64,000 nt of DNA, from positions 62,001 through 126,000 of the forward strand of contig NZ_LN879468.1 of assembly GCF_001403635.1 (NCBI RefSeq), in the 5' to 3' direction. This DNA is from Clostridium massiliamazoniense. Lineage in GTDB: Bacteria; Bacillota; Clostridia; Clostridiales; Clostridiaceae. Position numbers and translations under genes: made by a program. Under the pieces are notes generated by a model, which had not been told where the DNA came from, did not search any database, and saw only the letters and a list, made by a program, of their open reading frames with translations. This document shows positions 3,217-45,476 of this stretch, piece after piece. The number at the start of each line of letters is the position of its first letter. Positions within the stretch are counted from its first letter, which is position 1.

Positions 3217-3302
3217 TAGAATTTGAGATTATATTATCCTAGATATAATTTTCTATGTTAGAATTAAAATGACAACATATGAAAAAAACTAGGAGTGAAA
3301 CT

Positions 3303-5072: not shown

Positions 5073-5190
5073 GTTATATAGGAAAAATATTATAATTCAG
5101 TAATAAAAATAGTGAATTTCATTAAATTAGGATGAAATTTATTAAATTTTTTAAGGATTGAATATTTTATCATAGGTTAATTTAGAAAGA

Positions 5191-5242
5191 AATGATAAGG
5201 AAAGTATTAATAAATTATTTAATTTATTAATACTTTATCATT
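5191..5242. terminator. Long A+T-rich hairpin between the two SH3 genes
   Basis: Arms 5191-5216 and 5221-5242 pair over 16 perfect inner base pairs, with a 4-base bulge before a further outer stem. Only a short TTTT follows, so termination is likely but not certain. Confidence 0.55.
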
Positions 5243-5360
5243 TTAAATGGATAAAAAATATGATAATAGCAATAAAGGAACATTGAAATAAAAAAGGCAA
5301 AGAAATATAATGCAAGATAAGAAAAGCATAGAAATAACTCTATCAGATTTAGGAGGCAGG

Positions 5361-7028
5361 ATGATGAAGAAAAAAACTTTGGCATCTATATTTGCATTTA
5401 CAGCAGTAGCAACAACAGTAGGGGCAGGAATGGTGTCACAAGGAACAGTAGCTAAGGATAATTCTAACAATAATGAAGTTTTATTAACACAAAATGATGG
5501 TGGAAATAATACAAATAAGGTTAGTAATACAGAAGCTACAACTACTAACAATACTCAAAATTCTCAAACTACAGGAACAGCTGTAGTTATTAATGGAAAT
5601 GGATCTTTAGCATTAATGGGATCTAATTCAGTAAAAAGTAATTTAGTAGGGTATTTATCAGCTGGAGAAATGTTAACTGTTCATGGACAAGATGGTAATT
5701 GGTATAAGGTTACAGTTCAAGAAACAGGAGAAACAGGATATATAAATGCAGCTAACCTTCAGTTTATTGAAAGTGGAGTAAATGATCCATTATCAATTTT
5801 AAAAGGAAATGGACAAGTTATAAATGTAAGCTCTAACTTAAGAATAAGAGCAGCTGCAACAATGGATTCCAACACTATAGGTCATTTATTAAATGGAAAT
5901 AGCTTTAAGATAGTTGGAAAAGAAGGTCAATGGTATAAAATAAATGCCAATGGAGTAACTGGATTTGTTTATTCAGAATATGTAGCTCCATCTATAATAA
6001 ATGCAGTAAGTAATAGTGGAAATGCTGGGAATTCAACAGTAAATAATAATGTTACTACAAATAAAGCAAAATCTGCATCAGAAGCTAATAGCGTAAGTAA
6101 GGCAACTTCAAGTAATAGTTCAGTAGCTAACAATAACAGTAAAGAAACAACAAGTACTAATAGTACTGTTAAAGCTAAAACTGTTGACAATAGTACTGCT
6201 AAGGCTACAGTTGCTACAAATAGTACTTCAACAGCAAGTAATTCTGCAAGTAAAGTTGAAGCAAATAGTAAGGCAGAAGCAAGTAGTACTGTTAAAAATG
6301 GAAATGCTACAGCAACTAGCAATTCAACTGCAAGTGCTACAACAAATAGTGGTTCAGAGGCAAATGCTACAGCAAGTAGTAAGGCAACAACAGTTGCAGG
6401 AAATAATGTTTTATTAAGTGGACCTGCACATCATGAAAATAGTGAAAGTGTAAAATCTAATGTTAGCAATTCACAATTATATAATGAAATTTATAATATA
6501 GTTAAAGCGAACTTCTGGACTAACCCTAATACAGAAGGTAGTACAATGTCAATGAATATGAATCAAACTTATAATAAAGGTGGAGTAAATTATTATAGTG
6601 TTTATGTTCATACAACTAACTCAGATAATGGAGAAGCTAATACAACACATTATTATATAAGTACAAATGGTACTATATTAAATGGAAATGCTTTCAGCAA
6701 TAATAATGCTCAAGGAGCAAAACAAAATCCTTCACAAGTAAAAGAAGAGGTATCTACTATAGCTAGTGAGTATTTAAATGGACAAGTTAATAGTGGAAGC
6801 TTAGTTTATAACATAGATATGAATAACACTACAGAAAGCAATGGAAGTACATTCTATGCAGTTCAAGTGTATAATGGTTCAGTAAATAGCAATAACTATA
6901 TATCAACTATATATGTAAGTCCAAATGGACAAGTTTTAGGTTCATTACCTAAACAAAATAGTAATGCTAAGAGTAATCATAAAATAGTTAAAAGAACAAA
7001 AAGTACAGCAGATGTTGTAAATAAATAA
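5361..7028 (+). CDS. Secreted protein with two bacterial SH3 domains, paralogue of the preceding gene
   Basis: The start is the ATG at 5361, five bases after AGGAGG; the frame extends upstream without a site. The 555-residue product has a signal peptide (about residues 1-27), two SH3b domains, then about 130 residues rich in Ala, Ser, Thr and Asn with poly-threonine-like repeats, and a C-terminal domain homologous to that of the upstream gene. The low-complexity linker is much longer here than in the paralogue, as in wall-spanning stalks. A strong terminator follows, which is also the left end of a family A repeat. The role is inferred to be cell-wall binding; there is no visible enzyme domain or sorting signal. 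Confidence 0.85.
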   Translation: MMKKKTLASIFAFTAVATTVGAGMVSQGTVAKDNSNNNEVLLTQNDGGNNTNKVSNTEATTTNNTQNSQTTGTAVVINGNGSLALMGSNSVKSNLVGYLSAGEMLTVHGQDGNWYKVTVQETGETGYINAANLQFIESGVNDPLSILKGNGQVINVSSNLRIRAAATMDSNTIGHLLNGNSFKIVGKEGQWYKINANGVTGFVYSEYVAPSIINAVSNSGNAGNSTVNNNVTTNKAKSASEANSVSKATSSNSSVANNNSKETTSTNSTVKAKTVDNSTAKATVATNSTSTASNSASKVEANSKAEASSTVKNGNATATSNSTASATTNSGSEANATASSKATTVAGNNVLLSGPAHHENSESVKSNVSNSQLYNEIYNIVKANFWTNPNTEGSTMSMNMNQTYNKGGVNYYSVYVHTTNSDNGEANTTHYYISTNGTILNGNAFSNNNAQGAKQNPSQVKEEVSTIASEYLNGQVNSGSLVYNIDMNNTTESNGSTFYAVQVYNGSVNSNNYISTIYVSPNGQVLGSLPKQNSNAKSNHKIVKRTKSTADVVNK

Positions 7029-22427: not shown

Positions 22428-22468
22428 AGTGAGATGATTAAAAAATTAGTACATCTCACTGTTTTTTA
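22428..22468. terminator. Bidirectional terminator between convergent operons
   Basis: A perfect 10-bp stem (22428-22437 with 22453-22462) is followed by six T residues. The minus-strand gene stop lies at its right edge. Confidence 0.8.
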
Positions 22469-22960
22469 TTTATTAACCTTTTGAAGTAATGACCTTAGAG
22501 GCTTTAATAGGAAAAGTGTTGCTAAGAAAGTGCAAGCAGCATTTCCTAGAGAAACTTGAAAACCAAGTATTAAATATGTTATTAAAGATTGACCAGCCAT
22601 TCCTGTCATTAATATATAAGGTATTTCTATTATAGTTCCTGTCATAAAGGATAGTATAAATCCTGCTATTGCATAAATGTATTCAGATTTAGTTAGTTTA
22701 GATAAGAAGTAATATATAAGAGTATATTGTGGAAAAACTACTAGATACATTAAGCTCCATGGAGCAATTCCCCTTGTTAGCATAACTAAGAAGGCAAAAA
22801 CTAAAGCCGCAAGGTATGATGTTCTTTTATTTAAAGAAACTCCATAAAGAAGAATTATAAACCCAACTAACTCTACATACATAAAAAATGAACCTAAAAA
22901 ATAAATACAGTATAGAATAGCTGCAAGAACAGCTACTCTAGTTAGTTCTTTAGCACTCAT
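22466..22960 (-). CDS. ECF-type transporter substrate-binding (S) component
   Basis: The protein of about 164 residues is almost entirely hydrophobic with five to six membrane segments and the loop arrangement of ECF S-components (LTRVAVLAAILYC near the start). The ATG at 22960 sits next to the stop of the upstream DUF4430 gene (22962), implying translational coupling; a TTG at 22984 has no site. S-components bind a vitamin and work with a shared energising module encoded elsewhere. The DUF4430 partner belongs to a domain also found in cobalamin-binding transcobalamins, so a corrinoid substrate is plausible but unproven. Confidence 0.8.
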   Translation of the reverse strand: MSAKELTRVAVLAAILYCIYFLGSFFMYVELVGFIILLYGVSLNKRTSYLAALVFAFLVMLTRGIAPWSLMYLVVFPQYTLIYYFLSKLTKSEYIYAIAGFILSFMTGTIIEIPYILMTGMAGQSLITYLILGFQVSLGNAACTFLATLFLLKPLRSLLQKVNK

Positions 22961-22961
22961 A

Positions 22962-23411
22962 TTAATAAGTATTTGTGAAAACAAAAGTCATATAATTTTG
23001 TTTTCCAAGATTTATTTTATCAATAGCAGGAGCTAAGCCAACTTTGTAGTCTAGTTTCTCAGATGGGGAAGAAAATGAATATATCCACCAAGGTCCTTTA
23101 TCCATATTAGTGGTTTTAAGTCCCTCAAGTCCAAGTAGAAGTGTTCCATATGGAGCTTCATTAGTAGTTTCTACTTTTAACTCATCTTTATTTTCATTTA
23201 AAAATTCTTTTAATGTAGTGGCATTAGTTTGGAAAGTTTCCTTATCCATAATTGTTTTATGATTTACTTGATCTTCTATAGTAATAGTTACTGTTTTATC
23301 GCCTATAGTTTTCTTTGTCGTAGTAAATTTGTTAGCTGCGATTATTCCAATTGCAACAAGAATTATAAGAATAATTGCAATTATAATTTTGCTTATATTA
23401 TTTTTTTTCAA
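22962..23411 (-). CDS. DUF4430-domain extracytoplasmic protein
   Basis: The 149-residue protein starts at TTG after AAAGGAG. It has one N-terminal hydrophobic anchor (residues 8-27) followed by a DUF4430 domain: an ATTLKEFL-like segment, then GPWWIYSF. This domain is related to the small domain of cobalamin carriers. It is likely membrane-tethered on the outer face and hands ligand to the S-component encoded directly downstream. CobT (34637) in the same window would be consistent with corrinoid metabolism, but it is not linked. Confidence 0.8.
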   Translation of the reverse strand: MKKNNISKIIIAIILIILVAIGIIAANKFTTTKKTIGDKTVTITIEDQVNHKTIMDKETFQTNATTLKEFLNENKDELKVETTNEAPYGTLLLGLEGLKTTNMDKGPWWIYSFSSPSEKLDYKVGLAPAIDKINLGKQNYMTFVFTNTY

Positions 23412-23930
23412 TTTTAAATCTCCTTTTCTTAATATATTCCTTAATATTTAAGCAATTTAGCTATAATTATACATTTGTAAATTATAATATATTATTAAAT
23501 TGTTAACAAGTGATAAAAAGAATATAAACCAAGATTTAATTTACAGAAAGTTTTGCTCTAATTAAATTTAAAAAATAGATTGGTTATTTAAAAAATGATG
23601 GAAATAGCAATTTTTATAGAAGTAATCTTTAATATGAATATAAAAACTTTGTTGAGCTTCTAATAATGAATAAAATGAAAACAACTTATTAATAAATTGT
23701 TAATGAGTAGTTCACAAAATATTAATATTTAGTTAATTGAATATTAATATTTAGAAATAAATATCAATAACAAATAAAAAAATAGTAAAAAATAAGAATT
23801 GTTTAATTTAATTTTATAAAGTTATATAATTAAAAAAAAAAAGAAAATTTACTTATCTTTACTTAATATCTAAATTGTTATATATTTTACCTACACGATT
23901 AATAATTAGGATATAAAGGAAGTGTAACAA
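23412..23930. other. Divergent regulatory interval before the LPHTG surface protein
   Basis: The 519 bases hold no gene. An A11 homopolymer lies at 23832-23842, about 90 bases upstream of the surface protein start, with a TATATT-like hexamer near 23880. The A-tract could be an UP-type element or a slippage-prone tract. No clear terminator or riboswitch was seen. Confidence 0.5.
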
Positions 23931-26900
23931 ATGATACAAAATTCAAGTATACAACAACCAGCTCAAATTAGAATGGCTGCAAATCAAAATAATAAAGATA
24001 AGCAAGCAAAAGCAGGCGATGTAAGAGAAAATACACAACAACAAAACAATACATCTGGAGCTCAAGGAAGTAATACTCAAGCACCAAAAGCAGGACAAGG
24101 AAGTAATACTCAAGCACCAAAAGCAGGACAAAGAAGTAATACTCAAACACCAAAAGCAGGACAAGGAAGTAATGCTCAAGCACCAAAAGCAGGACAAGGA
24201 AGTAATGCTCAAGCACCAAAAGTAGGACAAGGAAGCAATACTCAAGCTCCAAAAGCAAGCAATAAAAAGGATAATAAAATAAAAACTAAGACAACAGGAA
24301 AAACAGATGTGAAAAAGACTTCTAAAAAAGTTGTAAATAATCCTGAAAATGCTCCATTACAAAAACAAATTAAAAATGATCAAAATCAAATAAAAGAGAA
24401 TACATCTAATAATACTAAAAAAGTGAATGAATTACAAAATCAAATTAATCAAGATAAGGTTAATTCATTAAAATCACAAGTTACTTCAAATGAAAATCAA
24501 GCAAAAGCTTTAGAGGGACAAGCTAAAACAGAAGCAACAAATGCTAAAAAAGATAGTGATTGGGGTAAAACATTAGAAGGACAATCACAAAAGTTAAATA
24601 ATAAAATTAAGAAAATAGAAAATGATGCTAAAAGAGATGCACAACATCATAACGCAAAAGGAGCTAAATCAGATACTGAATATGGTAATTCATTAAAGAA
24701 ACAAGCTCAAGAATTAAATAATAAAATAGCTAACATTAAAAAAGATGCAGCTAAAGATACAGCAGCAGCTAAAAATGATGCTAAAAAAGCTTCAGAAGTA
24801 ACAGCTAATAATAAAAAATCAGAAAATCTTTTAAATAACATTGAACAACAACAAGCTCAATTAAAGAAAGATCAAGCTAATGCCAAAAAAGAAGCTGCTA
24901 ATGCTAAAGCAGATTCACAATGGGAAAATCACTTAGTGAGCAATATAAATAACCTAAAATATCAACAAGCACAACATAAGCTTACTTATAATTATGAAAG
25001 TCAAATAGGAAATAAGGCTAAAGCAGCTGTAGCACAACAAAAAGTAAAAGAATTACAAAAACAAATTGATGCTTTACAAACAAAAGCTGCTAAAACATTA
25101 AAATATGAACAAAACGACAATAGTTCAGTTCAAAAATATGATCAAAATATTTCAAAGTTAAATAAAGAACTTCAAAAAGAATATGATGAAATAACTCCAA
25201 ATAAAAAAGCAGCTAAAGATATAGCTAATGCTGAAAATGAAATCAAAGCAGATAATGCTAATACAGCAAAAGCAAATGCAGCATTACAAAAAGAAATAGC
25301 TAATGATCAAAAAACAATGCAAGAAAATAATAATAATTTAGAAGCTCAAAATGCACTTAATGCTAAGAAAAATACATTAGAAAAACAAGCTAATGAAAAT
25401 GCAAAAAAAGCTAATGAGTTAAAAGGTTTAGCAAATACAGATAAAACAAATGCAAAACATGATACAGATTGGGCTAATTCACTTCAAAAGAAAGTTAATG
25501 CTTTAAACAAAAAAGAAGCTGAAGCTAAGAAAGATGCAGCAAGAGATGCGAAACATCATGATGCAAAAGGTGCTAAAGCGGATACTGAATGGGCACATAG
25601 CTTACAATCACAAATAAATAAATTAAATAAAGAAATAAAAACAGTTAAAAATGATGCAGCTAAAGATACAGCAGCAGCTAATAAATATGAATCACAAGCT
25701 AAATCTCATGAAGCAGTAGCTAAGGCAGCTCAATCAAAATTAGATTCAGTAGCTAAAGCACAAAAAGAAATAACTGCTCAAAATAAAGTAGCTCAAACAG
25801 AGTCAACAAATGCAAAACATGATACAGACTGGGCAAATACTTTAAAAGGTAGAGTAGCTAAATTAAATTATGACAATGCAGAAGCAAAGCTTACTGAAAA
25901 TTATTATGGAGCTAACAGTACTCAAGGCAAAAAAGCCGCTAAAGAAATAGCTCAAAATAATAAAGAAATAGCAAAATTAAATAAAGAAATAAAAACAGTT
26001 GAAAATGATGCTAAAAAAGATCAAGCTGCAGCTAATAAAGCAGAAACTAAAATAGATTCTTCAGTTAAGAATGTAGAAAAAACTTTAGGATTAAATAATG
26101 TTTCAACTTCTGCATTAAAAAATGTTTTAGAAGGAACAACTACAAAGAAAACAGACGTTAAGAACGATACAAAGAAAACAGACGTTAAGAATGATACAAA
26201 GAAAACAGACGTTAAGAATGATACAAAGAAAACAGACGTTAAGAATGATACAAAGAAAACAGACGTTAAGAACGATACAAAGAAAACAGATGTTAAGAAT
26301 GATACAAAGAAAACAGACGTTAAGAACGATACAAAGAAAACAGACGTTAAGAACGATACAAAGAAAACAGACGTTAAGAATGATACAAAGAAAACAGATG
26401 TTAAGAACGATACAAATAAGACTGAAGGAACAACTTCATCAACTTCAAGTTCATCATCAAGTTCTTCAAGTTCATCATCACAAGTTAGTGGAGGAAAAGT
26501 AGAAACTACTTCAACTTCATCAACTAAAGTTACAGGAAATGGAACTGCAAATGCTAATGGAAGTGCATCAGCAAAAGATGGTTCAGCTACAGCACAATCA
26601 AAAACTTCAGCAGAAACTAAAGGAACTGGTAGTGCAAAAGGAACAAGCAGTTCATCAGCACAAGTTACTGGAACAAGCACAAAAGCTGATTCAAAAACTT
26701 CAGTAGAAACTAAAGGTGATTCAACTGCAACAGGAACAGCTAGTTCATCAGCTAAAACTGATAAAACAACTTCAGAAACAAATTCAAAAACTTCAGCAGA
26801 AACTAAAGGAACTGGTAGTGCAACAGGAACAAGTAGTTCATCAGCTAAGAGCACAGCAACAGGAACAATAGATTCTAGCTCAAATACATCAACAAAAGTA

Positions 26901-27725
26901 GATGGAACAGGATCAGCAACAGGAACAGCTAGTTCATCAGCAACAGGTAATAAAGCTGATTCAGCAACATCTAATTCAAGTTCATCAACAAAAGTAGATG
27001 GAAAAGGTTCAGCAACAGCAAACTCAAGTTCATCAGCAAAAACTGATAAAACAAGCTCAAAAACTGAATCAAGTTCATCATCAAAAGTAGATGGAACAGG
27101 ATCAGCATCAGCTAATTCAAGTTCATCAGCAAAAGCTAATGGAACAGGATCAGCATCAGCTAGCTCAAGTTCATCAGCAAAAGCAGATGGAACAGGATCA
27201 GCATCAGCTAATTCAAGTTCATCAGCAAAAGCTAATGGAACAGGATCAGCATCAGCTAATTCAAGTTCATCAGCAAAAGCAGATGGAACAGGATCAGCAT
27301 CAGCTAATTCAAGTTCATCAGCAAAAGCTAATGGAACAGGATCAGCAACAGCAAACTCAAGTTCATCAGCAAAAGCTAATGGAACAGGATCAGCAACAGC
27401 AAACTCAAGTTCATCAGCAACAGCTAATGGCAATGAGACAAGCAATAAAACTGTAAAAGTAAATGTTTCTAACTCAACTAAACATGATGTAACAGTAAGT
27501 TCAAATGCAAATGGTCAAACTGTAGTTAACCATAAAGTATATTCAGCTCCAGCTTCATCAGCAAAAGCTAATAACATGTTGCCAAAAGTTTCAGAAACAA
27601 ATACAAGCTCAGCATCATTACCTCATACAGGATTAAATGCTCCAAATAAAGCAGAATCAGCTTTAGGATTACTTGGATTAGCAGGTGTAATGGGAAGCTT
27701 ATTTACAATATTAAAAAGAAAATAA
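23931..27725 (+). CDS. Large repeat-rich LPHTG surface protein without a classical signal peptide
   Basis: The 1264-residue protein starts after AAAGGAAGTG; an in-frame stop lies two codons upstream, so the start is firm. The N-terminus is hydrophilic and shows no signal peptide. Order of parts: six 11-residue repeats GSNTQAPKAGQ (residues 45-110), a long charged helical region to about 735 with recurring AKHDTDWANSL- and AKKDAARDA-type units, ten exact KKTDVKNDT repeats (residues 739-828), a Ser run, about 300 residues of SSSSAKADGTGSASAN-type 16-residue repeats, and an LPHTG sorting signal (1230-1234) with hydrophobic segment and KRK tail. It should be covalently wall-anchored; export via the adjacent SecA2 is inferred. 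Confidence 0.92.
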   Translation: MIQNSSIQQPAQIRMAANQNNKDKQAKAGDVRENTQQQNNTSGAQGSNTQAPKAGQGSNTQAPKAGQRSNTQTPKAGQGSNAQAPKAGQGSNAQAPKVGQGSNTQAPKASNKKDNKIKTKTTGKTDVKKTSKKVVNNPENAPLQKQIKNDQNQIKENTSNNTKKVNELQNQINQDKVNSLKSQVTSNENQAKALEGQAKTEATNAKKDSDWGKTLEGQSQKLNNKIKKIENDAKRDAQHHNAKGAKSDTEYGNSLKKQAQELNNKIANIKKDAAKDTAAAKNDAKKASEVTANNKKSENLLNNIEQQQAQLKKDQANAKKEAANAKADSQWENHLVSNINNLKYQQAQHKLTYNYESQIGNKAKAAVAQQKVKELQKQIDALQTKAAKTLKYEQNDNSSVQKYDQNISKLNKELQKEYDEITPNKKAAKDIANAENEIKADNANTAKANAALQKEIANDQKTMQENNNNLEAQNALNAKKNTLEKQANENAKKANELKGLANTDKTNAKHDTDWANSLQKKVNALNKKEAEAKKDAARDAKHHDAKGAKADTEWAHSLQSQINKLNKEIKTVKNDAAKDTAAANKYESQAKSHEAVAKAAQSKLDSVAKAQKEITAQNKVAQTESTNAKHDTDWANTLKGRVAKLNYDNAEAKLTENYYGANSTQGKKAAKEIAQNNKEIAKLNKEIKTVENDAKKDQAAANKAETKIDSSVKNVEKTLGLNNVSTSALKNVLEGTTTKKTDVKNDTKKTDVKNDTKKTDVKNDTKKTDVKNDTKKTDVKNDTKKTDVKNDTKKTDVKNDTKKTDVKNDTKKTDVKNDTKKTDVKNDTNKTEGTTSSTSSSSSSSSSSSSQVSGGKVETTSTSSTKVTGNGTANANGSASAKDGSATAQSKTSAETKGTGSAKGTSSSSAQVTGTSTKADSKTSVETKGDSTATGTASSSAKTDKTTSETNSKTSAETKGTGSATGTSSSSAKSTATGTIDSSSNTSTKVDGTGSATGTASSSATGNKADSATSNSSSSTKVDGKGSATANSSSSAKTDKTSSKTESSSSSKVDGTGSASANSSSSAKANGTGSASASSSSSAKADGTGSASANSSSSAKANGTGSASANSSSSAKADGTGSASANSSSSAKANGTGSATANSSSSAKANGTGSATANSSSSATANGNETSNKTVKVNVSNSTKHDVTVSSNANGQTVVNHKVYSAPASSAKANNMLPKVSETNTSSASLPHTGLNAPNKAESALGLLGLAGVMGSLFTILKRK
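24063..24260 (+). repeat. Six tandem 33-bp coding repeats
   Basis: Six in-frame copies encode QGSNTQAPKAG with a few substitutions (R for G, A for T, T for A, V for A, S for G). Confidence 0.9.
26145..26414 (+). repeat. Ten tandem 27-bp coding repeats
   Basis: Ten consecutive units encode KKTDVKNDT without any amino-acid change. They differ only by silent C/T changes, indicating recent expansion or homogenisation. Confidence 0.95.
27025..27435 (+). repeat. Tandem 48-bp Ser/Ala/Gly-rich coding repeats
   Basis: About eight 16-residue units of the form SSSSAKADGTGSASAN. Alternate units exchange AD and AN at the same place, suggesting a 96-bp higher-order unit. Confidence 0.85.
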
Positions 27726-27757
27726 TTAAAATAGTTAATATTATTTAAGAGTGTTTT

Positions 27758-27839
27758 ATGGGTTTCAACTTTTCAAAGAAACCCATATTTAAATTTGTAT
27801 TTTAATCAAAGATATTTTATATGTAAAATATTTTTGATT
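27758..27839 (+). terminator. Two successive hairpins between the surface protein and secA2
   Basis: A perfect 9-bp stem (27758-27766 with 27778-27786) is followed by a 16-bp stem including one G-U pair (27804-27819 with 27824-27839). Neither has a strong T-run, so partial termination with read-through into secA2 is possible. Confidence 0.55.
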
Positions 27840-27911
27840 AGAAGATATTTAAGGAGTACTACGTTCATTGCATATTCTAGTATTAGTAAAGGAGTCTAAA
27901 GGTGAAGTCAT

Positions 27912-30281
27912 ATGTTAGGGTTTAATAATTATGATGAAAGAGAAATTAAAAAATTAGAAAAGAAAGCAGATAGCATTATTGCATTAGATAAAAAAATATC
28001 TATGTTATCTGATAAGGAATTATCAGGTATGACAAATATATTTAAAAAAAGATTATCTAATGGAGAAACATTAGATGATTTATTAGTAGAGGCTTTTGCT
28101 GTTTGTAGAGAGGCTTCTTATAGAATTTTAGGAAAAAAGCAATATAAAGTACAACTTATGGGAGGAATAGTTATTCACCAAGGTAGAGTTGCGGAAATGA
28201 AAACTGGAGAGGGAAAAACTCTTACTGAACTTTGTCCTGCATATTTAAATGCTTTAAGAGGAAAAGGGGTTCATGTAATAACTGTAAATGACTATCTTTC
28301 TGAGAGGGATAAGGAAGAAATGGAACCGTTATTTAATTTTTTAAATTTATCAGTAGGGCTAGTTATTGAAAGCACAGAAAATAGAAGGGTTGAATATAGA
28401 AAAGATATTACTTATAGTACAAATACTGAAATTGGCTTTGATTATTTAAGAGATAATATAGTTTATGAAGTTAAAGATAAGGTTATGAGAGCTTTAAATT
28501 ATGTTATTATTGACGAAATTGACTCAATTTTAATAGATGAAGCAAGAACCCCACTTATTATAAGTACTGTGGGAGAAGAGTCAACAGATATTTATAAATA
28601 TATAAATTCAATAATAAGTACTCTTCAGAAATCTGATTATGAAATAGATAGAGAAGATAATACTATTTTATTAAATGAAGATGGAATAGAAAAAGTAGAA
28701 AAGATGCTAAATGTAAAAAACATAGCTGATGTAAGACTTAGTGAGGTTAACCATATAATAGCACAGTCTTTAAGAGCAAATTTTCTTATGAAAAGAGATA
28801 AAGATTACATAATAAGAGATGGAGAAGTTGTTATTATTGATGAGGGAACTGGAAGAATATCAGAAGGAAGAAGATTCTCAGATGGGTTACATCAATGTTT
28901 AGAAGCGAAGGAAAATGTTGAGATAAATGAAGAAGCAAGAACTTTAGCTACTATAACTTATCAAAATTTATTTAAATTATATAATAAAGTATCAGGAATG
29001 AGTGGTACTGTAAAAACTGAAGAATGGGAATTTAAAGAGATATATGATCTTGATGTAGTTGTTATACCAACTAATAAAGAGATAAAAAGAATAGATTATA
29101 AGGACTTGGTTTACCCAACTAAAAAAGCAAAATTTAATGCTGTAATAAGAGATATAATATCAACTAATGAAGTTGGAAGACCTGTTTTAGTAGGAACATC
29201 TTCTATAGAAAATTCAGAGATATTATCTAGAATGCTTAATAAAAGAGGAATAAAACATAATCTTTTAAATGCTAAAAACAAGGCTGAGGAAGCTGAAATA
29301 GTAGCAAGAGCAGGTGAATATGGAGCTATTACCATAGCAACTAATATGGCTGGAAGAGGAACAGATATAAAAATAACAGATGCTATAAATAATTTAGGTG
29401 GGTTAAGGGTTATAGGAACAGAAAGAGCTGAAAGTAAAAGAATAGATAATCAGTTAATTGGTAGAGCTGGAAGACAGGGGAATAATGGGTCATCACAATT
29501 TTACATTTCTATAGAAGATGACCTTTTAGTAAATCATAGTAAGAAGAAATTTAGTAAAAAAGATGTTAAGACATCAATAGCTCAAATTAGGAAAGAAGTA
29601 GAGAAGGCTCAAAGGGTAGTTGGAGGTAAAAATTTCGAAACAAGAAAAGAAACTGTTAAATATAATGAAGTTATAAATAATCATAGAAAAATGATTTATA
29701 GAGAGAGAGATTTAATATTATTTGGTCAAGATATAAGAGTTAACATAACTAGAATGATTTTAGAATTAAATTCAGAAATAGTTAAGGAACTAGCGGAAGA
29801 ATATAAAATAAAAAATTTAAATCAATTATCAAGTTTTAATAGAAAAATATTTATGGGTAAGTTACTAGAAAAGTTAGATTTACATTATAGGTATTCCTTT
29901 GAAGAGCAGTATAAGGAATATAAGTTTAATAAATTAAGCACTTTAGATGAATTAGTAGTATTTTGTACAGATGAACTTATAGAGTACTTTAATAAATTAA
30001 TATTTTTAGATATAATAAATTTTGAAGAGCACATTAAAAGGACTATGTTAAGTATAATAGATGAAAACTGGGTAAGATATTTAAATAATATGGAGCTCCT
30101 TAAACAGAGAGTAAGAAGTGAAGTTTATATGCAAAAAGATCCTGTTCAAGTTTATAATAAAGAAAGTTTAAATATGTATAATGATTTAATTAAAGGTATA
30201 AAATATGACTTTATAGAAATGGTGTTTAAGGATATAATACCAGAAATCGTTATGGAATATAGTGAAAATTATTGCTCTTAA
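27912..30281 (+). CDS. secA2: Accessory Sec translocase ATPase SecA2
   Basis: The 789-residue SecA has Walker A MKTGEGKT (residues 97-104), the DEID box in IDEIDSILIDEARTP, and a second nucleotide-binding half with TNMAGRGTDIKI and QLIGRAGRQGN. It is shorter than housekeeping SecA and lacks the C-terminal CxCxSGxxxxxC zinc/SecB-binding tail, ending SENYCS. These are features of SecA2, which drives export of a limited set of proteins through the membrane channel. Its gene lies directly behind the signal-less LPHTG protein and ahead of an anchored partner and a sortase, but no SecY2 or Asp genes are present, so the general SecYEG channel is presumably used. Confidence 0.9.
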   Translation: MLGFNNYDEREIKKLEKKADSIIALDKKISMLSDKELSGMTNIFKKRLSNGETLDDLLVEAFAVCREASYRILGKKQYKVQLMGGIVIHQGRVAEMKTGEGKTLTELCPAYLNALRGKGVHVITVNDYLSERDKEEMEPLFNFLNLSVGLVIESTENRRVEYRKDITYSTNTEIGFDYLRDNIVYEVKDKVMRALNYVIIDEIDSILIDEARTPLIISTVGEESTDIYKYINSIISTLQKSDYEIDREDNTILLNEDGIEKVEKMLNVKNIADVRLSEVNHIIAQSLRANFLMKRDKDYIIRDGEVVIIDEGTGRISEGRRFSDGLHQCLEAKENVEINEEARTLATITYQNLFKLYNKVSGMSGTVKTEEWEFKEIYDLDVVVIPTNKEIKRIDYKDLVYPTKKAKFNAVIRDIISTNEVGRPVLVGTSSIENSEILSRMLNKRGIKHNLLNAKNKAEEAEIVARAGEYGAITIATNMAGRGTDIKITDAINNLGGLRVIGTERAESKRIDNQLIGRAGRQGNNGSSQFYISIEDDLLVNHSKKKFSKKDVKTSIAQIRKEVEKAQRVVGGKNFETRKETVKYNEVINNHRKMIYRERDLILFGQDIRVNITRMILELNSEIVKELAEEYKIKNLNQLSSFNRKIFMGKLLEKLDLHYRYSFEEQYKEYKFNKLSTLDELVVFCTDELIEYFNKLIFLDIINFEEHIKRTMLSIIDENWVRYLNNMELLKQRVRSEVYMQKDPVQVYNKESLNMYNDLIKGIKYDFIEMVFKDIIPEIVMEYSENYCS

Positions 30282-30330
30282 AATCTTCAAACAAAAGATA
30301 AAAGTGCAAAATTAGCAAAGGAGAATTAGT

Positions 30331-31257
30331 GTGAGGAAGAAAAGAATAATTTTATTAATGTCCTTAGGTCTTTCAGCTTTTGCCTTGAAGGGAGGAGCTA
30401 CAGAAGTAGTAAATCATAAGCCTGTAAGCACTAATAGGGTATTATTGGTGGCTAATAATTCTCAAGGGCAAAGCATTGAATATAAGGATAACAATTTATC
30501 GGATATATCATCTGCAAATCCAGAACAGTTTGATAATCCACAAGTAGGTCCAAGGGGAATTCTTGAAAGAATGCAGTCTACAACTATAAATACAAAATAT
30601 GGAGAAATGTCTATTGAAAGAGTTCAAGATGGGTTTCAATGTAAGAATTTAAGTAATCCGAATGCTCCAGTTTTGTTCGTATCAGCAGTTAATAATATAT
30701 ATGAAGTTGGTGGACAAACTGATTTAAAAGGATTTCTTAGTCCTAAAATAGTTAATGGACAAGGAACTATAATATTACCTAACGTAAATACTTCAGAAGC
30801 AAATTTTGGAGTAAAGTATGTGGAAGCTATAGGAACTAATGGAGCTATTACTATAGCACCTTTTATCTACAATACTGTTCAATTTAAAAATTCTGTTAAT
30901 GTAAAAGCAGAAGGAGATATAAATTCTCTAACTTTAAATGATGTATTAGAAGGTCCAAGCAATGACTTGAAGCTTTATATAGCCAATTATGATAAAGGAA
31001 GTAAAGTTGTAACTATAGGTTTAAGTAGAGGGGTAGCATCTATTCAAAAGGCATTACCACTAACTATTGGAAGTAGTACAGATACAAGTAAAACAAACGT
31101 AGATACAGGAACTGCAAATCAAAATACATCTGCAATTCAAAAAAATAATGTGAAAGTACCATTATTAATACAGATATTATTAAGTAAGTGGACTTACATA
31201 ATAGTTGGAATTATTTTAATTGCAATTGTTTCTTTTTTCTGTTTTACTGGATTATAA
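30331..31257 (+). CDS. Extracytoplasmic protein with signal peptide and C-terminal membrane anchor
   Basis: The 308-residue product starts at GTG after AAAGGAG. Residues 1 to about 23 form a signal peptide, the middle is a hydrophilic domain rich in Asn, Val and Ile strands, and residues 280-303 are a single membrane segment with a very short tail. There is no LPxTG motif. No family is recognised. It lies 49 bases after secA2 and before the sortase gene, so it is a candidate accessory factor or second surface component of the same export locus. That role is inferred from position only. Confidence 0.8.
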   Translation: MRKKRIILLMSLGLSAFALKGGATEVVNHKPVSTNRVLLVANNSQGQSIEYKDNNLSDISSANPEQFDNPQVGPRGILERMQSTTINTKYGEMSIERVQDGFQCKNLSNPNAPVLFVSAVNNIYEVGGQTDLKGFLSPKIVNGQGTIILPNVNTSEANFGVKYVEAIGTNGAITIAPFIYNTVQFKNSVNVKAEGDINSLTLNDVLEGPSNDLKLYIANYDKGSKVVTIGLSRGVASIQKALPLTIGSSTDTSKTNVDTGTANQNTSAIQKNNVKVPLLIQILLSKWTYIIVGIILIAIVSFFCFTGL

Positions 31258-31437
31258 GTTTTCCTAAAAACTAATTTGAAAATATTTAATTTTTTATTAT
31301 AAGAAAAGATTGTTGATATTTTATTTTTAGTGGAAGTGGTTACTATGCTTATGGATAAATTAGATGAAAATCATTAGAAATTTTAAAAAGTTTTTATATG
31401 AATTAAATCTTATTTTATAGAAACTGAGGTGTTACAA

Positions 31438-32190
31438 TTGAAAAGGAAAAAACCGGCAGTAGGGGTTCTACTGATAATCATAATAATAGGAGTATTATTT
31501 TCGATTTATAAATATTTAAACTTTACTTATGGTACATATTTGAATTCTGGAATGGCATTTAGTACAGGGCAAGGAGCTATCAGTGAATTAAGCACAATGA
31601 TAACAGGCGGAGACTGGACAAAAGCTATTTATAAAATGGGAAATTTAGAAGAAGAATATGATAAGGCCCATGCAATTAATAGTCAAGTAGTAGGATGGAT
31701 TTTCATAGATGGTACAAATATAAACTATCCTATAATGCATGGGGAAGAGGATCAATATTACTTAACACATAACTGGAAAGGTGAACCTTATTGGAACGGA
31801 AGTATATTTTTAGATCATGCAAATAGTGGATTTAATAATGTATCATTAATAAATGGACATAACATGTTAAATGGAATAATGTTTAGTCAATTAACTAATT
31901 TTGAAAATAAGGATTTCTTTGATGGAAATCATGATATATACATATATGATGGATTAAATAAGAAATTAGAGAAATTCAAAGCTATAGGAGCAATTTATTG
32001 TGAACCAACCATAGATTTATCTTTAGGTAATTTATCACCAGAAGAAAGAACAGCAGAGGTAAATAGACTTTTATCTCAATCAATGTATCCTAAAGAAAAT
32101 TATAATGGAAATAATGTATTACTTTTAAATACATGTCTTTCAAATGGTTCAGGAAAACATATATTAGTAATTGCAGAACAAGTTAATTAA
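31438..32190 (+). CDS. srtB: Class B sortase
   Basis: The start is TTG six bases after GAGGTG; the in-frame GTG at 31429 overlaps that site. The 250-residue protein has an N-terminal membrane anchor (residues 8-25) and a sortase fold of class B type, with catalytic His141 in INGHNM and Cys233 in LLNTC. The conserved arginine normally found after the cysteine, at the head of the last strand, appears replaced by Lys240-His241 (GSGKHILVIA). It would attach LPxTG-type substrates to peptidoglycan outside the membrane, the obvious candidate being the LPHTG protein of this locus. A strong terminator follows. Confidence 0.88.
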   Translation: MKRKKPAVGVLLIIIIIGVLFSIYKYLNFTYGTYLNSGMAFSTGQGAISELSTMITGGDWTKAIYKMGNLEEEYDKAHAINSQVVGWIFIDGTNINYPIMHGEEDQYYLTHNWKGEPYWNGSIFLDHANSGFNNVSLINGHNMLNGIMFSQLTNFENKDFFDGNHDIYIYDGLNKKLEKFKAIGAIYCEPTIDLSLGNLSPEERTAEVNRLLSQSMYPKENYNGNNVLLLNTCLSNGSGKHILVIAEQVN

Positions 32191-32205: not shown

Positions 32206-32250
32206 AAAAGGTGATGTTTCAAAATTTACTTTGAGACATCACCTTTTTTA
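32206..32250. terminator. Bidirectional terminator after the sortase
   Basis: Arms 32206-32223 and 32230-32247 form an 18-bp stem with one mismatch, with A-runs and T-runs at either side; it serves the sortase operon and the convergent glyoxalase gene. Confidence 0.85.
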
Positions 32251-41304: not shown

Positions 41305-41571
41305 TGGATAAAGAGTTTTTTAGAATTTAAAATAATTTTAAATTTTATTATTTTAGTGGAAGTTTCTAGGAAAATATATATAGTATTAAAGTTTTAGAAA
41401 AGTGAGAAAAATTTCAAAGTAAGGATTAAATAAGATATAAAGTGAATTAAATTGAAAAATCACTGAAAAAAGACCAAAAGACAATATCGACTTTAATCCA
41501 AGTAGGCTATATAATACCTTTGATGACTATATAAACATTTAGAACTAATGAGGAAAATAGGAGATGAACAA

Positions 41572-43524
41572 ATGAATAAGAAGTCCTTTCTAAGGGATAC
41601 TTTAATATTTATTCTGTCGGCAATAATAATTATTATATCTATTAAATGTTTAGGCAACAATAATTTGATGGTTGGAATAACAGGGCTGTTTTTATTTATA
41701 GCTATATTAAATAAAGATTTTTCAAGAACACCATTGAGGGGTATTATAAAAATATCATTTTTAATGGGATTAATAGCCTTTGTTCCATATTTAGCTAATT
41801 TAAATATTTATACTGGACTTGTGATAAATTTTTTAGCTATATTCTTTATTTTATATATTGTAGTATATACTTTAAACAAAACCATATATTTTCCCTTTGT
41901 TTTTGGATATACCCTATTTTTAACTACTGATGTATCTGGAAGAAATTTAGCTTTAAGAATTATTGGCTTAATTATCGTTGGTATAATAGCAGTTATATTT
42001 CAAATACTTTATACTAAATATACTTCTGAAAAATCTAATGAAAATAAAATTTTAACTGAAATGATAGAAGCTTTAGTAAGTAGTATAAATGATATAAAAA
42101 TAGGTAAGAGTAATCTAAAATCCAGAGAGAGGATAAAAGAATTAAGTACATATTGGAGCAGAGATATCCTAGAAAAGAGAAATAATAGTTTCTATCTTAA
42201 TGAAGATGAAAACATAGAATTAAACTTAATTGCTACTATTGAAAGGTTAGATAGGCTTTCTCAGAAAATAGGAGTTAAACTTAATACTGGGGAAGACAAA
42301 TATGAAGAACTATTGAGTCATATGGAAGATTTGTTAAATTCATTAAAGAATTTTATTAATAAAAAAATAGACATAAAAGAACTTAATAAATCTATAGATA
42401 AAATGAATTTAGCCTATAAGCATGAAAAGTTAAATGATATTATCATTTATGAGGCTATAGAAGCATTAGCTGTAATTGATAAATTAACAGATGCACTTTT
42501 AGTAGTTAATTCGAAAAAATATGTTGGATATAAATTTGGATGGAAAGAAATTGTTGAAACTAAAAATTTACTTGTTTCTGATTTCAATAGAAACTCTGTA
42601 AGGTTTATTTTTGCATTTAGAACAGCTCTTATAGTATCTTTATCATATTTTGCTATGGAGTATTTCCACATACAATTAGCTAAATGGGTGATATTCACAA
42701 TAACATCAGTATCACAACCATATAATGATACTATAAGAAGTAGAGCAAAAGGAAGAATCATAGGGACTTTAATAGGGGTAGTTATTTACTTACCATTAGC
42801 ATCAGTGTTTACTACAGTAGATGAAAGGTTAGTAATAATAGGAATAGCTGCTTATCTTATGATTTTATTTAAAGAGTATTCTTACAGTACAGCAATGCTA
42901 ACAGTACTATTTTTAGGTGTTATTACTATTGATGTTCAAAATATAATGGCATATGTTGAAGATAGATTATTCTTCGTTGCTTTAGGTGTAATAATAGTAT
43001 TATTAGCTAATAGATTTATATTCCCTTATAGTTTAAGGAAAGAAACAAAAGCTTTAGTTGAAAAATACTACAATACAGGTAATGAAATTATAGAAAAAAC
43101 AATGCTTTTATATAAGAAAAAGAATGTTAAAGATGATATAATAAATCTTATATTAGAAGCACAGGGCTTTGAAAATAAAATATTACTAAATAACGTGGCT
43201 TTAGATAATGATTTATTAAGAGAATTTAGAAATAACCAAAGAATACTTCTTAATAACGTAAATACCATTTTAAATAGAGTTGAATATTGTGAAATTAATT
43301 TAAAAGAATCAATGGAAGGTAAATTAAAGAATCTTAACTCTATGAGAGATGAAATTGAAAAAGAACTTGAGGTAAATAATTTAGATACTGAAAATATATT
43401 AAATAGATATTGTAATTTAGCACACAATACTACAGAAAAATTAATATATATAGATGTTTATGAAATGATTGTGGCAAAATATAAATGTGCTAGAATTAAA
43501 GATCATTTAATGGCAACAATATAA
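41572..43524 (+). CDS. FUSC-family membrane protein, first of a paralogous pair
   Basis: The 650-residue protein starts at the ATG after AGGAG (not at 41548). It has two sets of about six membrane segments (residues about 10-160 and 355-490), separated by a cytosolic helical region, and a cytosolic C-terminal helical domain; this is the FUSC/aromatic acid exporter layout. The second half begins with the family signature region SVRFIFAFRTALIVSLSYF. Such proteins are thought to export aromatic acids or act in envelope homeostasis. It is followed 143 bases later by a close paralogue. Confidence 0.85.
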   Translation: MNKKSFLRDTLIFILSAIIIIISIKCLGNNNLMVGITGLFLFIAILNKDFSRTPLRGIIKISFLMGLIAFVPYLANLNIYTGLVINFLAIFFILYIVVYTLNKTIYFPFVFGYTLFLTTDVSGRNLALRIIGLIIVGIIAVIFQILYTKYTSEKSNENKILTEMIEALVSSINDIKIGKSNLKSRERIKELSTYWSRDILEKRNNSFYLNEDENIELNLIATIERLDRLSQKIGVKLNTGEDKYEELLSHMEDLLNSLKNFINKKIDIKELNKSIDKMNLAYKHEKLNDIIIYEAIEALAVIDKLTDALLVVNSKKYVGYKFGWKEIVETKNLLVSDFNRNSVRFIFAFRTALIVSLSYFAMEYFHIQLAKWVIFTITSVSQPYNDTIRSRAKGRIIGTLIGVVIYLPLASVFTTVDERLVIIGIAAYLMILFKEYSYSTAMLTVLFLGVITIDVQNIMAYVEDRLFFVALGVIIVLLANRFIFPYSLRKETKALVEKYYNTGNEIIEKTMLLYKKKNVKDDIINLILEAQGFENKILLNNVALDNDLLREFRNNQRILLNNVNTILNRVEYCEINLKESMEGKLKNLNSMRDEIEKELEVNNLDTENILNRYCNLAHNTTEKLIYIDVYEMIVAKYKCARIKDHLMATI

Positions 43525-43554
43525 CATAATAAAATATTTACCTAATGACTAGTA

Positions 43555-43601
43555 GCTGCAATGTTCCAGATTAAGATGGAGTATTGCAGCATTATGTTTT
43601 T
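43555..43601 (+). terminator. Terminator between the two FUSC genes
   Basis: GCTGCAAT at 43555 pairs with its complement ending at 43590, with a further TTCCA/TGGAG inner stem, followed by TTTTT. Confidence 0.75.
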
Positions 43602-43667
43602 AAAGATAAATTAATACAATACAATATAATATAAGTATATTTATTTGACCTAAGGGAGATGACAAAA

Positions 43668-45476
43668 ATGAATAAAAAAGCCTTTATGGCTAATAACCTT
43701 ATATTTATTATTTCTTTAGCATTTGTTTATATGTCAATAGAACATTTAGGAAGTAATAATTTAATGGTTGGAATTACAGGGATGTTTTTATTAATAGCTA
43801 TTGTAAATAAGGACTTTTCAAGGAATCCTATAAGAGCAATAACTAAAATATCATTTTTAACAGCTTTTATAGCACTTGCACCCTACCTAGTAAATTTAAA
43901 TATATATTCTGGATTGATTATAAACTTTTTAGTTGTATTTATAATGATATATTTAGTTGTGTATACTTTAAATAAAACCATATACTTTCCTTTTTTATTT
44001 GGTTATACATTACTTTTAACAACTAATGTTTCAGGAAAGAACTTAGATTTAAGAATATTAGGAATGGTTTCTATTGGAATAATAGCTGTTATATTTCAAA
44101 TAATTTTTTCTAAAATAATATCTAAAAATACTAATAAAAACAAGGATTTAATAGAGATAATAGATTTACTTATTAAAACTATTGATGATTTTAAATTAGA
44201 AAATTTAAATTCAAACAATAAGGAAGCTTTAAAAGAAAGAATCACTTATTGGAGTAGAGATATACTAGAAAAAAGAAATAATAGTTTTTATTTAAGAGAT
44301 GTTGAGAACATAGAGCTAAATTTAATTGCAGCCATTGAAAAATTAAGTAGAGTATCTCAAAGAATGGCTGAAGAGAATAAGGATACATATAGTGATTTCC
44401 TAACAGATTTAGAGAAAACTTTAGGATATTTAAAAGACTCTTTGGAAAAAGGTCTAAAGGAAAATAATTTTGGAATATTAATAAATGAAATTAATAGTAA
44501 ATATGAATTATTAAAAATAGAAGATATAAAAGTTTATGAAGGAGTAGAAGCTTTAAATGTAATTGAAAGATTAGTGGACAAGCTTTTAGAAGTAAAAAAG
44601 AAAGATTATATAGAGATTAAATTTGGAAAGAAAGAAATTATAGAGACAAAAAATTTATTGATTTCTGATTTCAATAGAAACTCTGTAAGATTTATTTTTG
44701 CATTTAGGACAGCTCTTTTAGTGTCATTGTCATATTTTGTAATTCAGTATTTTCATATAGAGTTAGGAAAATGGATGCTATTTACTATAACATCTGTGTC
44801 ACAACCTTATAATGATACTGTTGAAGGAAGAGCTAAGGGAAGATTATATGGGACTGTAGCGGGAGTTTTAATTTATCTTCCATTATCTTATATGTTTACA
44901 TCAGTTCATTCTAGAATAATCATAATAGCTATAGCTGTATACTTCATGATTTCATTTAAAAAATATGCTTATAGCATATCTATGTTAACAATATTATTTT
45001 TAGGGGTTGTAACTATAAATGTACCTAATATATTAGCCTTTGCAGAAAGTAGAGTGCTTTTTGTAGCTTTAGGAATAGTAGTAGTTCTTTTAGGAAATAA
45101 ATTTATATTCCCTTATAGTTTAGAAAAAGAAACAAGGATTTTAATAAATAAGTATTATAATTGTTGTAATGAAATTTTAGATAAAACTTTATTATTATAT
45201 AAGGAAGATGGCATAAGGGAAGAAATAAGAAACTTAATAATTACAGCTCAAGGTATAGAAAATAAAATTTTATTAAATAATACAGCACTAGATAGTAATA
45301 TGATAAGGGAATTCAGAAATGAATCTAGAAACCTTTTAAATGATATACATAATGTATTAAATAGAGTAGAATATCTAGATAGCGACTTAAGAAGAAATGG
45401 CTATGAAAGAATGAATATTATAGCTGAAATGAGAAAAGAAATTGATAATGAAAAAGATAAAAAAAAATTTAGATAA
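43668..45476 (+). CDS. FUSC-family membrane protein, second paralogue, C-terminally frameshifted at an A9 run
   Basis: It starts after AAGGGAG and aligns with its neighbour along its length, including the shared SVRFIFAFRTALLVSLSYF segment. The frame ends early at 45476 after ...NEKDKKKFR. Nine consecutive A residues at 45459-45467 precede this. Removing one A restores a frame running to 45612 that encodes NLDNILNKYISSV...SEKLIYMDVYEMIV, matching the paralogue's C-terminus (NILNRY...TEKLIYIDVYEMIV). Either the tract is variable in nature or an assembly error is present. The membrane parts are unaffected. The function is as for the first paralogue. Confidence 0.83.
   Translation: MNKKAFMANNLIFIISLAFVYMSIEHLGSNNLMVGITGMFLLIAIVNKDFSRNPIRAITKISFLTAFIALAPYLVNLNIYSGLIINFLVVFIMIYLVVYTLNKTIYFPFLFGYTLLLTTNVSGKNLDLRILGMVSIGIIAVIFQIIFSKIISKNTNKNKDLIEIIDLLIKTIDDFKLENLNSNNKEALKERITYWSRDILEKRNNSFYLRDVENIELNLIAAIEKLSRVSQRMAEENKDTYSDFLTDLEKTLGYLKDSLEKGLKENNFGILINEINSKYELLKIEDIKVYEGVEALNVIERLVDKLLEVKKKDYIEIKFGKKEIIETKNLLISDFNRNSVRFIFAFRTALLVSLSYFVIQYFHIELGKWMLFTITSVSQPYNDTVEGRAKGRLYGTVAGVLIYLPLSYMFTSVHSRIIIIAIAVYFMISFKKYAYSISMLTILFLGVVTINVPNILAFAESRVLFVALGIVVVLLGNKFIFPYSLEKETRILINKYYNCCNEILDKTLLLYKEDGIREEIRNLIITAQGIENKILLNNTALDSNMIREFRNESRNLLNDIHNVLNRVEYLDSDLRRNGYERMNIIAEMRKEIDNEKDKKKFR

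What the first reader, a model, noticed from the sequence alone, without database searches (positions are those of the whole stretch)
23931..32190. Candidate export-and-anchoring system: signal-less LPHTG protein, SecA2, anchored partner and sortase B
Four same-strand genes in 8.3 kb form a coherent set: a substrate lacking a signal peptide, an accessory SecA without the zinc tail, a membrane-tethered extracellular protein, and a sortase. No secY2 or asp genes are present, unlike the streptococcal accessory Sec system. This locus layout is not one I know as characterised.
Basis: partly seen in the sequence, partly recalled or inferred. Interest (0 to 1): 0.8.

Follow-up and report, generated by a model that had tools for sequence, protein, structure and literature searches.

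The report
Arginine-less sortase beside signal-less surface protein
A clostridial locus places a large wall-anchor-type protein that has no export signal next to an extra export motor and a wall-attaching enzyme whose usual essential arginine is replaced by histidine, so export and anchoring here may work in an unusual way.

Summary
The four genes are real and at the stated places. The 1264-aa LPHTG protein shows no signal peptide by hydropathy, and stops lie within 28 nt upstream in all frames. The SecA is SecA2-like, without Zn tail; its nearest relative found is a second SecA in genome G573 (55%). As a conserved four-gene system the reading fails: the last two genes travel together without SecA2 in 3 of 7 genomes of a Sarcina-related genus, and G573's SecA2 relative is unlinked. 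What is conserved is a partner-sortase pair; LPXTG-type genes lie near the sortase in 4 of 5 loci. The unexpected finding is the sortase: the arginine 8 residues after the catalytic cysteine, reported essential, is histidine in 5 of 5 family members, against arginine in 27 of 27 compared Clostridiaceae sortases. Best reading: a surface-anchoring module with a non-canonical class B-like sortase and a membrane partner, plus, in this genome only, a SecA2 that plausibly exports the signal-less protein. That last step is inferred.

The parts
23931..27725 (+). Large repeat-rich LPHTG surface-type protein without signal peptide (1264 aa); Lys/Ala/Asn-rich middle, Ser/Ala/Thr-rich segment; tandem repeats of 33, 27 and 48 bp
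27618..27725 (+). C-terminal sorting signal: LPHTG, hydrophobic stretch, KRK tail, stop
   Evidence: sequence
27757..27843 (+). Two hairpins between the LPHTG gene and secA2 (10-bp perfect stem, arms 27757-27766 and 27778-27787; 20-nt stem 90% paired, arms 27800-27819 and 27824-27843), possible terminator or attenuator
   Evidence: fold z-score -3.84
27912..30281 (+). SecA2-like accessory SecA ATPase, 789 aa, no Zn-binding tail
30331..31257 (+). Membrane-tethered extracellular partner protein (signal-like N-terminus, about 250-aa ectodomain, C-terminal TM); conserved companion of the sortase
31429..32190 (+). Class B-like sortase with Cys236 and His144 but His244 in place of the catalytic Arg (probable start TTG 31438)
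32206..32247 (+). Intrinsic-terminator-like hairpin closing the group
   Evidence: 6 such sites found in the region, 3.0 expected

Best explanation
This is a cell-surface display locus built around a conserved two-gene anchoring module: a membrane-tethered partner and a divergent class B-like sortase that uses Cys236 and His144 with His244 where other sortases have their catalytic arginine. The module joins LPXTG surface proteins encoded beside it (here the LPHTG protein) to the wall or to each other, the partner presenting substrate or assisting the enzyme at the membrane. In this genome a SecA2-like motor has become part of the locus and most likely powers export, through the housekeeping SecYEG channel, of the LPHTG protein that lacks a signal peptide. 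Shown: the genes, absence of a signal peptide, pairing of partner and sortase, the Arg-to-His change, and the SecA grouping. Inferred: LPHTG is the substrate, SecA2 exports it, the partner helps the sortase, and the sortase is active.
For: Full-length partner and sortase adjacent, same order and strand, in 4 of 4 loci. An LPXTG-type gene lies within two intervening genes of the sortase in 4 of 5 loci: window; G574, a cut LPDTG gene directly before the partner; G570, LPHTG, convergent and next to the sortase; Sarcina sp. JB2 plasmid p3, LPDTG SpaA-domain protein directly before the sortase. His at Cys+8 in 5 of 5, Arg in 27 of 27 comparators; C. difficile SrtB has C226 and R234, also +8 (PMC4371152, passages). 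The 67 invariant columns in five sequences include NGHNMLNGIMFSQL and NTCLSNG, which argues for a working enzyme. The SecA groups with G573's second SecA at support 1.0, apart from the 17 Zn-tailed rows. Export of signal-less proteins by SecA2 systems is known elsewhere (recalled).
Against: SecA2 is next to the sortase in 1 of 5 loci. In G570 the LPHTG reading frame starts with a signal-peptide-like sequence (it crosses a 4011-N gap), and so does the JB2 SpaA protein: in the 2 neighbouring proteins outside the window whose start could be read, the usual route is available. In G573, which has the SecA2 relative, no signal-less LPXTG protein was found: 38 sites gave 4 automatic matches, of which I judge 2 real, one with a normal signal peptide, one cut by a contig start. 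Hairpins separate the LPHTG gene from secA2, so co-transcription is doubtful. JB2's plasmid has no partner. The SecA scores below all four NCBIfam SecA2 cut-offs. No direct functional data.
Confidence: 0.42

Rival explanations
1. Chance neighbours: a sortase-partner module beside an LPXTG gene, with an unrelated SecA2 between them that serves other cargo. The LPHTG protein has lost its signal peptide by recent 5' truncation and is no longer exported.
For: SecA2 beside the sortase in 1 of 5 loci; SecA2 relative in G573 unlinked; hairpins between LPHTG and secA2; the 2 readable neighbouring LPXTG proteins elsewhere have signal-like starts; no homolog of the LPHTG protein found.
Against: The 1264-codon frame is intact through long repeat arrays, with strong coding bias (GC3 0.088), a good Shine-Dalgarno directly before the ATG and an intact sorting signal; I saw no signal-peptide-like remnant among the upstream ORFs.
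Confidence: 0.35
2. The sortase is a pseudoenzyme: without the arginine it cannot catalyse and acts, with the partner, only as a substrate-holding membrane scaffold.
For: Arg is reported essential in sortases (PMC13257024 passages) and is absent at this place in 5 of 5.
Against: Cys, His and the surrounding motifs are invariant in 5 of 5 while +7 varies (K, E, K, K, N), and His at +8 is itself invariant, a pattern of an altered active site under selection rather than decay.
Confidence: 0.15
3. The LPHTG protein leaves the cell without SecA2, by riding with another exported protein or by lysis, and is then captured.
For: Export of signal-less tail-anchored proteins with a Tat-dependent partner is discussed in PMC10924467 (passages).
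Against: No Tat component among the 39 window ORFs scanned (the rest of the genome is not held); a 1264-aa repetitive protein is an unlikely Tat passenger (inference).
Confidence: 0.08

Closest known systems
Class B sortases (C. difficile SrtB; PDB 5b23, 4y4q, whose organisms the output does not name)
   Same: N-terminal TM; relation to 5b23 E 3.5e-27 with the 4-sequence profile and 2.1e-20 with the window protein alone; catalytic His and Cys; spacing of 8 from Cys to the third residue
   Different: His instead of Arg at Cys+8; neighbouring proteins carry LPHTG or LPDTG; paired with a membrane partner in 4 of 5
SecA2 with solved structure (PDB 6t4h; C. difficile, organism recalled)
   Same: Closest solved relative (E 5.9e-215); SecA without Zn tail; no SecY2 among scanned window ORFs
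   Different: Groups with G573's second SecA, apart from the C. difficile-like rows G123, G147, G191 (likeness recalled); the 10 other SecA2 loci read have no window-type sortase or partner nearby
SecA2/SecY2 accessory Sec locus of streptococci (GspB type; PMC3297441 passages)
   Same: SecA2 next to a serine-rich LPXTG protein
   Different: No SecY2, Asp or glycosyltransferase found; no 90-residue signal peptide; a sortase is in the locus
Sortase beside pilin-like gene (Sarcina sp. JB2 plasmid p3)
   Same: Same His-type sortase family (48%), directly after an LPDTG SpaA-domain protein
   Different: No SecA2 and no partner on the plasmid; the SpaA protein has a signal-peptide-like start

Membership tests
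Class B sortase | Match to the class B model over its curated cut-off | tested here: not met
   TIGR03064 114.8 bits against cut-off 153.75; the general Pfam Sortase model is just met, 26.7 against 26.6
Sortase (all classes) | Catalytic Cys in a TLXTC-like motif and catalytic His | tested here: met
   LNTC Cys236 and GHNML His144, invariant in 5 of 5
Sortase (all classes) | Catalytic Arg at start of strand 8 | tested here: not met
   His at Cys+8 in 5 of 5; Arg in 27 of 27 comparators
Accessory SecA2/SecY2 system | secY2 and asp genes in the locus | tested here: not met
   None among 39 window ORFs scanned with Pfam
SecA2-only system | Second SecA besides a housekeeping SecA in the same genome | tested here: inconclusive
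   Window genome not held; the SecA lacks the Zn tail and groups with the second SecA of G573
SecA2-only system | Intact SecA ATPase | tested here: met
   GEGKT, DEID, GTGR, GRAGRQG present
SecA2-only system | Over an NCBIfam SecA2 cut-off | tested here: not met
   TIGR04397, TIGR03714, NF012136 and TIGR04221 all below cut-off; three general SecA models pass theirs
Sortase substrate | C-terminal LPXTG, hydrophobic stretch, basic tail | tested here: met
   LPHTG plus KRK tail
Sortase substrate | N-terminal signal peptide | tested here: not met
   (hydropathy and reading frames; no predictor)

The most novel reading that the evidence does not exclude
A dedicated display pathway in which a SecA2 exports a signal-less LPXTG protein directly to an arginine-free Cys-His-His sortase whose membrane partner completes the active site or hands over the substrate (the partner has an Arg233 in SRG, invariant in 4 of 4), i.e. 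a new sortase subclass and an unrecorded way of delivering a sortase substrate.
Probability: 0.15. Interest if true: 0.85.

Novelty: new variant of a known kind. Interest (0 to 1): 0.55.

Why it matters
Sortases are described as His-Cys-Arg enzymes with Cys and Arg indispensable (PMC13257024 passages). A conserved subfamily with His in place of the Arg, usually tied to a membrane partner, gives a natural test of what the Arg does and whether sortases can be multi-subunit. A signal-less sortase substrate beside SecA2 would make the open question of what SecA2 recognises directly testable in one small locus.

Tried and rejected
A signal peptide hidden upstream by a non-ATG start or one frameshift: rejected, stops in all three frames within 28 nt. 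Streptococcal-type accessory Sec: rejected (no SecY2, Asp or glycosyltransferase among the 39 scanned ORFs). Zn-tailed housekeeping SecA: rejected. Isd haem cluster, described as the home of srtB (PMC3297441 passages): no NEAT-type protein among the scanned ORFs. Partner as a known domain: no Pfam match for the window protein even at E 5, and two weak chance-like names, each for one other member; no solved relative with the profile, one E 0.77 match for the single protein. Its single-sequence fold was poor (pLDDT 41.6) and was not searched; the sortase model was poor too (55.7), only its strand at 244-252 is mentioned. A marginal partner-profile match in G493 (E 0.0036) lies in a large LPKTG surface protein and was not used. 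Viral-contig scans gave no relatives. A class-sample search for the partner gave 0 of 391, without a positive control; one search set too strict an E-value and shows nothing. No Rfam match in the window. Paper searches: among the titles and abstract beginnings listed (lists capped, e.g. 12 of 263, 8 of 48, 8 of 70) I saw none that describes an Arg-less sortase or a secA2-sortase locus; this says no more than that. PMC7859188 (Sarcina of chimpanzees) has no occurrence of sortase, SecA2 or LPXTG in its main text. The 52 LPXTG-codon sites of G574 were not examined.

Full report
Observation. The four ORFs are present on the + strand at the stated coordinates. The LPHTG protein (23931-27725) has only one hydrophobic segment, that of its C-terminal sorting signal. 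The nearest upstream stops in the three frames are 6, 28 and 17 nt before the ATG, so no single frameshift or alternative start can supply a signal peptide. It carries tandem arrays of 33, 27 and 48 bp units, a Lys/Ala/Asn-rich middle and a Ser/Ala/Thr-rich segment (30% Ser at residues 880-1215). Signal peptides throughout are judged by hydropathy or by eye; no predictor was at hand.

SecA. The 789-aa protein has the SecA domains and intact ATPase motifs, and lacks the Cys-rich tail that 17 of 27 compared rows show (two rows, L048 and L073, are the same gene). NCBIfam's four SecA2 models match below their cut-offs while three general SecA models pass. In the tree it groups only with the second SecA of G573 (support 1.0), which is also the best match in 206 family genomes (55%, E 2.1e-258, next 4.7e-237). 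Each of the 7 genus genomes has a Zn-tailed SecA, and 2 of 7 (G573, G576) show a second SecA at E 1e-200. The window's own genome is not held, so its housekeeping SecA is assumed.

The conserved unit. The sortase has relatives at 57-66% in 3 of 206 family genomes (G570, G573, G574), all of one 7-genome genus; the next by score is 33% identical, E 2.8e-25. The partner is found in the same 3 of 7, in those 3 of 225 order genomes with strong scores plus one marginal match, and in 0 of 391 class-sample genomes (no positive control). In window, G570, G573 and G574 a full-length partner stands directly before the sortase; G570 has a second, broken partner copy without a sortase after it. None of the three relatives has a SecA2 beside the pair; G573's is on another contig. 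Of 10 other SecA2 loci read (16-20 kb each), 0 have an ORF matching the window sortase or partner; G576's has an LPYTG gene with a signal-peptide-like start, and two other pattern matches there (L071, L072) do not look like sorting signals.

Neighbours of the sortase. Sarcina sp. JB2 plasmid p3 carries a 48% relative directly after an LPDTG SpaA-domain protein with a signal-peptide-like start, without SecA2 or partner. G574 has an LPDTG gene, cut by the contig end, just before the pair, and G570 a convergent LPHTG gene after it, whose frame opens with a signal-peptide-like sequence but crosses a 4011-N gap, so it is not one proven protein. G573 shows no sorting signal on the 16.6-kb contig of the pair. 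In all, 4 of 5 sortase loci have an LPXTG-type gene close by. The unnamed genus is taken as Sarcina-related from the JB2 match; this is inference.

The missing arginine. Sortases are described as His-Cys-Arg enzymes with Cys and Arg indispensable (PMC13257024, passages). C. difficile SrtB has C226, H133 and R234, the Arg in the first part of strand 8 (PMC4371152, passages), eight residues after Cys. At Cys+8 the window sortase has His244. His is there in 5 of 5 members (4, JB2) and Arg in 27 of 27 other Clostridiaceae sortases from the same search (these 27 are the ones with loci, of 65 further matches listed). HMMER aligns this His without a gap to the Arg of 5b23, but for 4y4q puts a one-residue gap that pairs the Lys column with the Arg. 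That column is K, E, K, K, N in the family, so by either alignment the Arg is gone. After the Cys, 4 of 5 have no Arg at all and L115 has one near its C-terminus; the only invariant basic residues are His114, His144 and His244. The single-sequence model, of low confidence, begins a strand at residue 244.

Mechanism. Most likely the pair anchors or links the neighbouring LPXTG protein, with the partner as a membrane-held helper, and in this genome SecA2 drives the signal-less LPHTG protein through SecYEG. The linkage is a single case and the two other neighbours with a readable start have signal-like starts, so the export step is inferred. In G573, which has the SecA2 relative, 38 LPXTG-codon sites gave 4 automatic matches, of which I judge 2 to be real sorting signals, one on a protein with a normal signal peptide and one cut by a contig start. 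Two hairpins between the LPHTG gene and secA2 and a terminator-like site after the sortase suggest that secA2, partner and sortase form one unit and the LPHTG gene another; no transcript data exist here.

Verdict. The gene list was read correctly and the four-gene system is not conserved in the relatives at hand; the lasting find is an Arg-to-His sortase subfamily, in 4 of 5 cases with a membrane partner beside it.

Noticed in passing
window 3279-7028: Two adjacent secreted-type proteins with bacterial SH3 domains, possibly a tandem duplication.
   Followed up: no
window 41548-45476: Two adjacent FUSC-family membrane proteins; a 27-28% relative is the third gene after the His-type sortase on the Sarcina JB2 plasmid.
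   Followed up: partly
window 22466-23411 (-): Two overlapping reverse-strand genes, a membrane protein and a secreted-type one, no Pfam match; order recalls an ECF transporter S component with a binding protein (recalled, untested).
   Followed up: no
L113 6410-6952 and 8902-9804: G570 has a second, broken partner copy beside repeated surface-protein copies, suggesting tandem duplication or assembly trouble.
   Followed up: no
L126 (G493): Weak partner-profile match, E 0.0036, in a 2510-codon open frame; the stretch read ends in an LPKTG sorting signal.
   Followed up: partly
window 23832-23842: A run of 11 A about 90 nt before the LPHTG start, which might allow phase variation of expression (read).
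   Followed up: no
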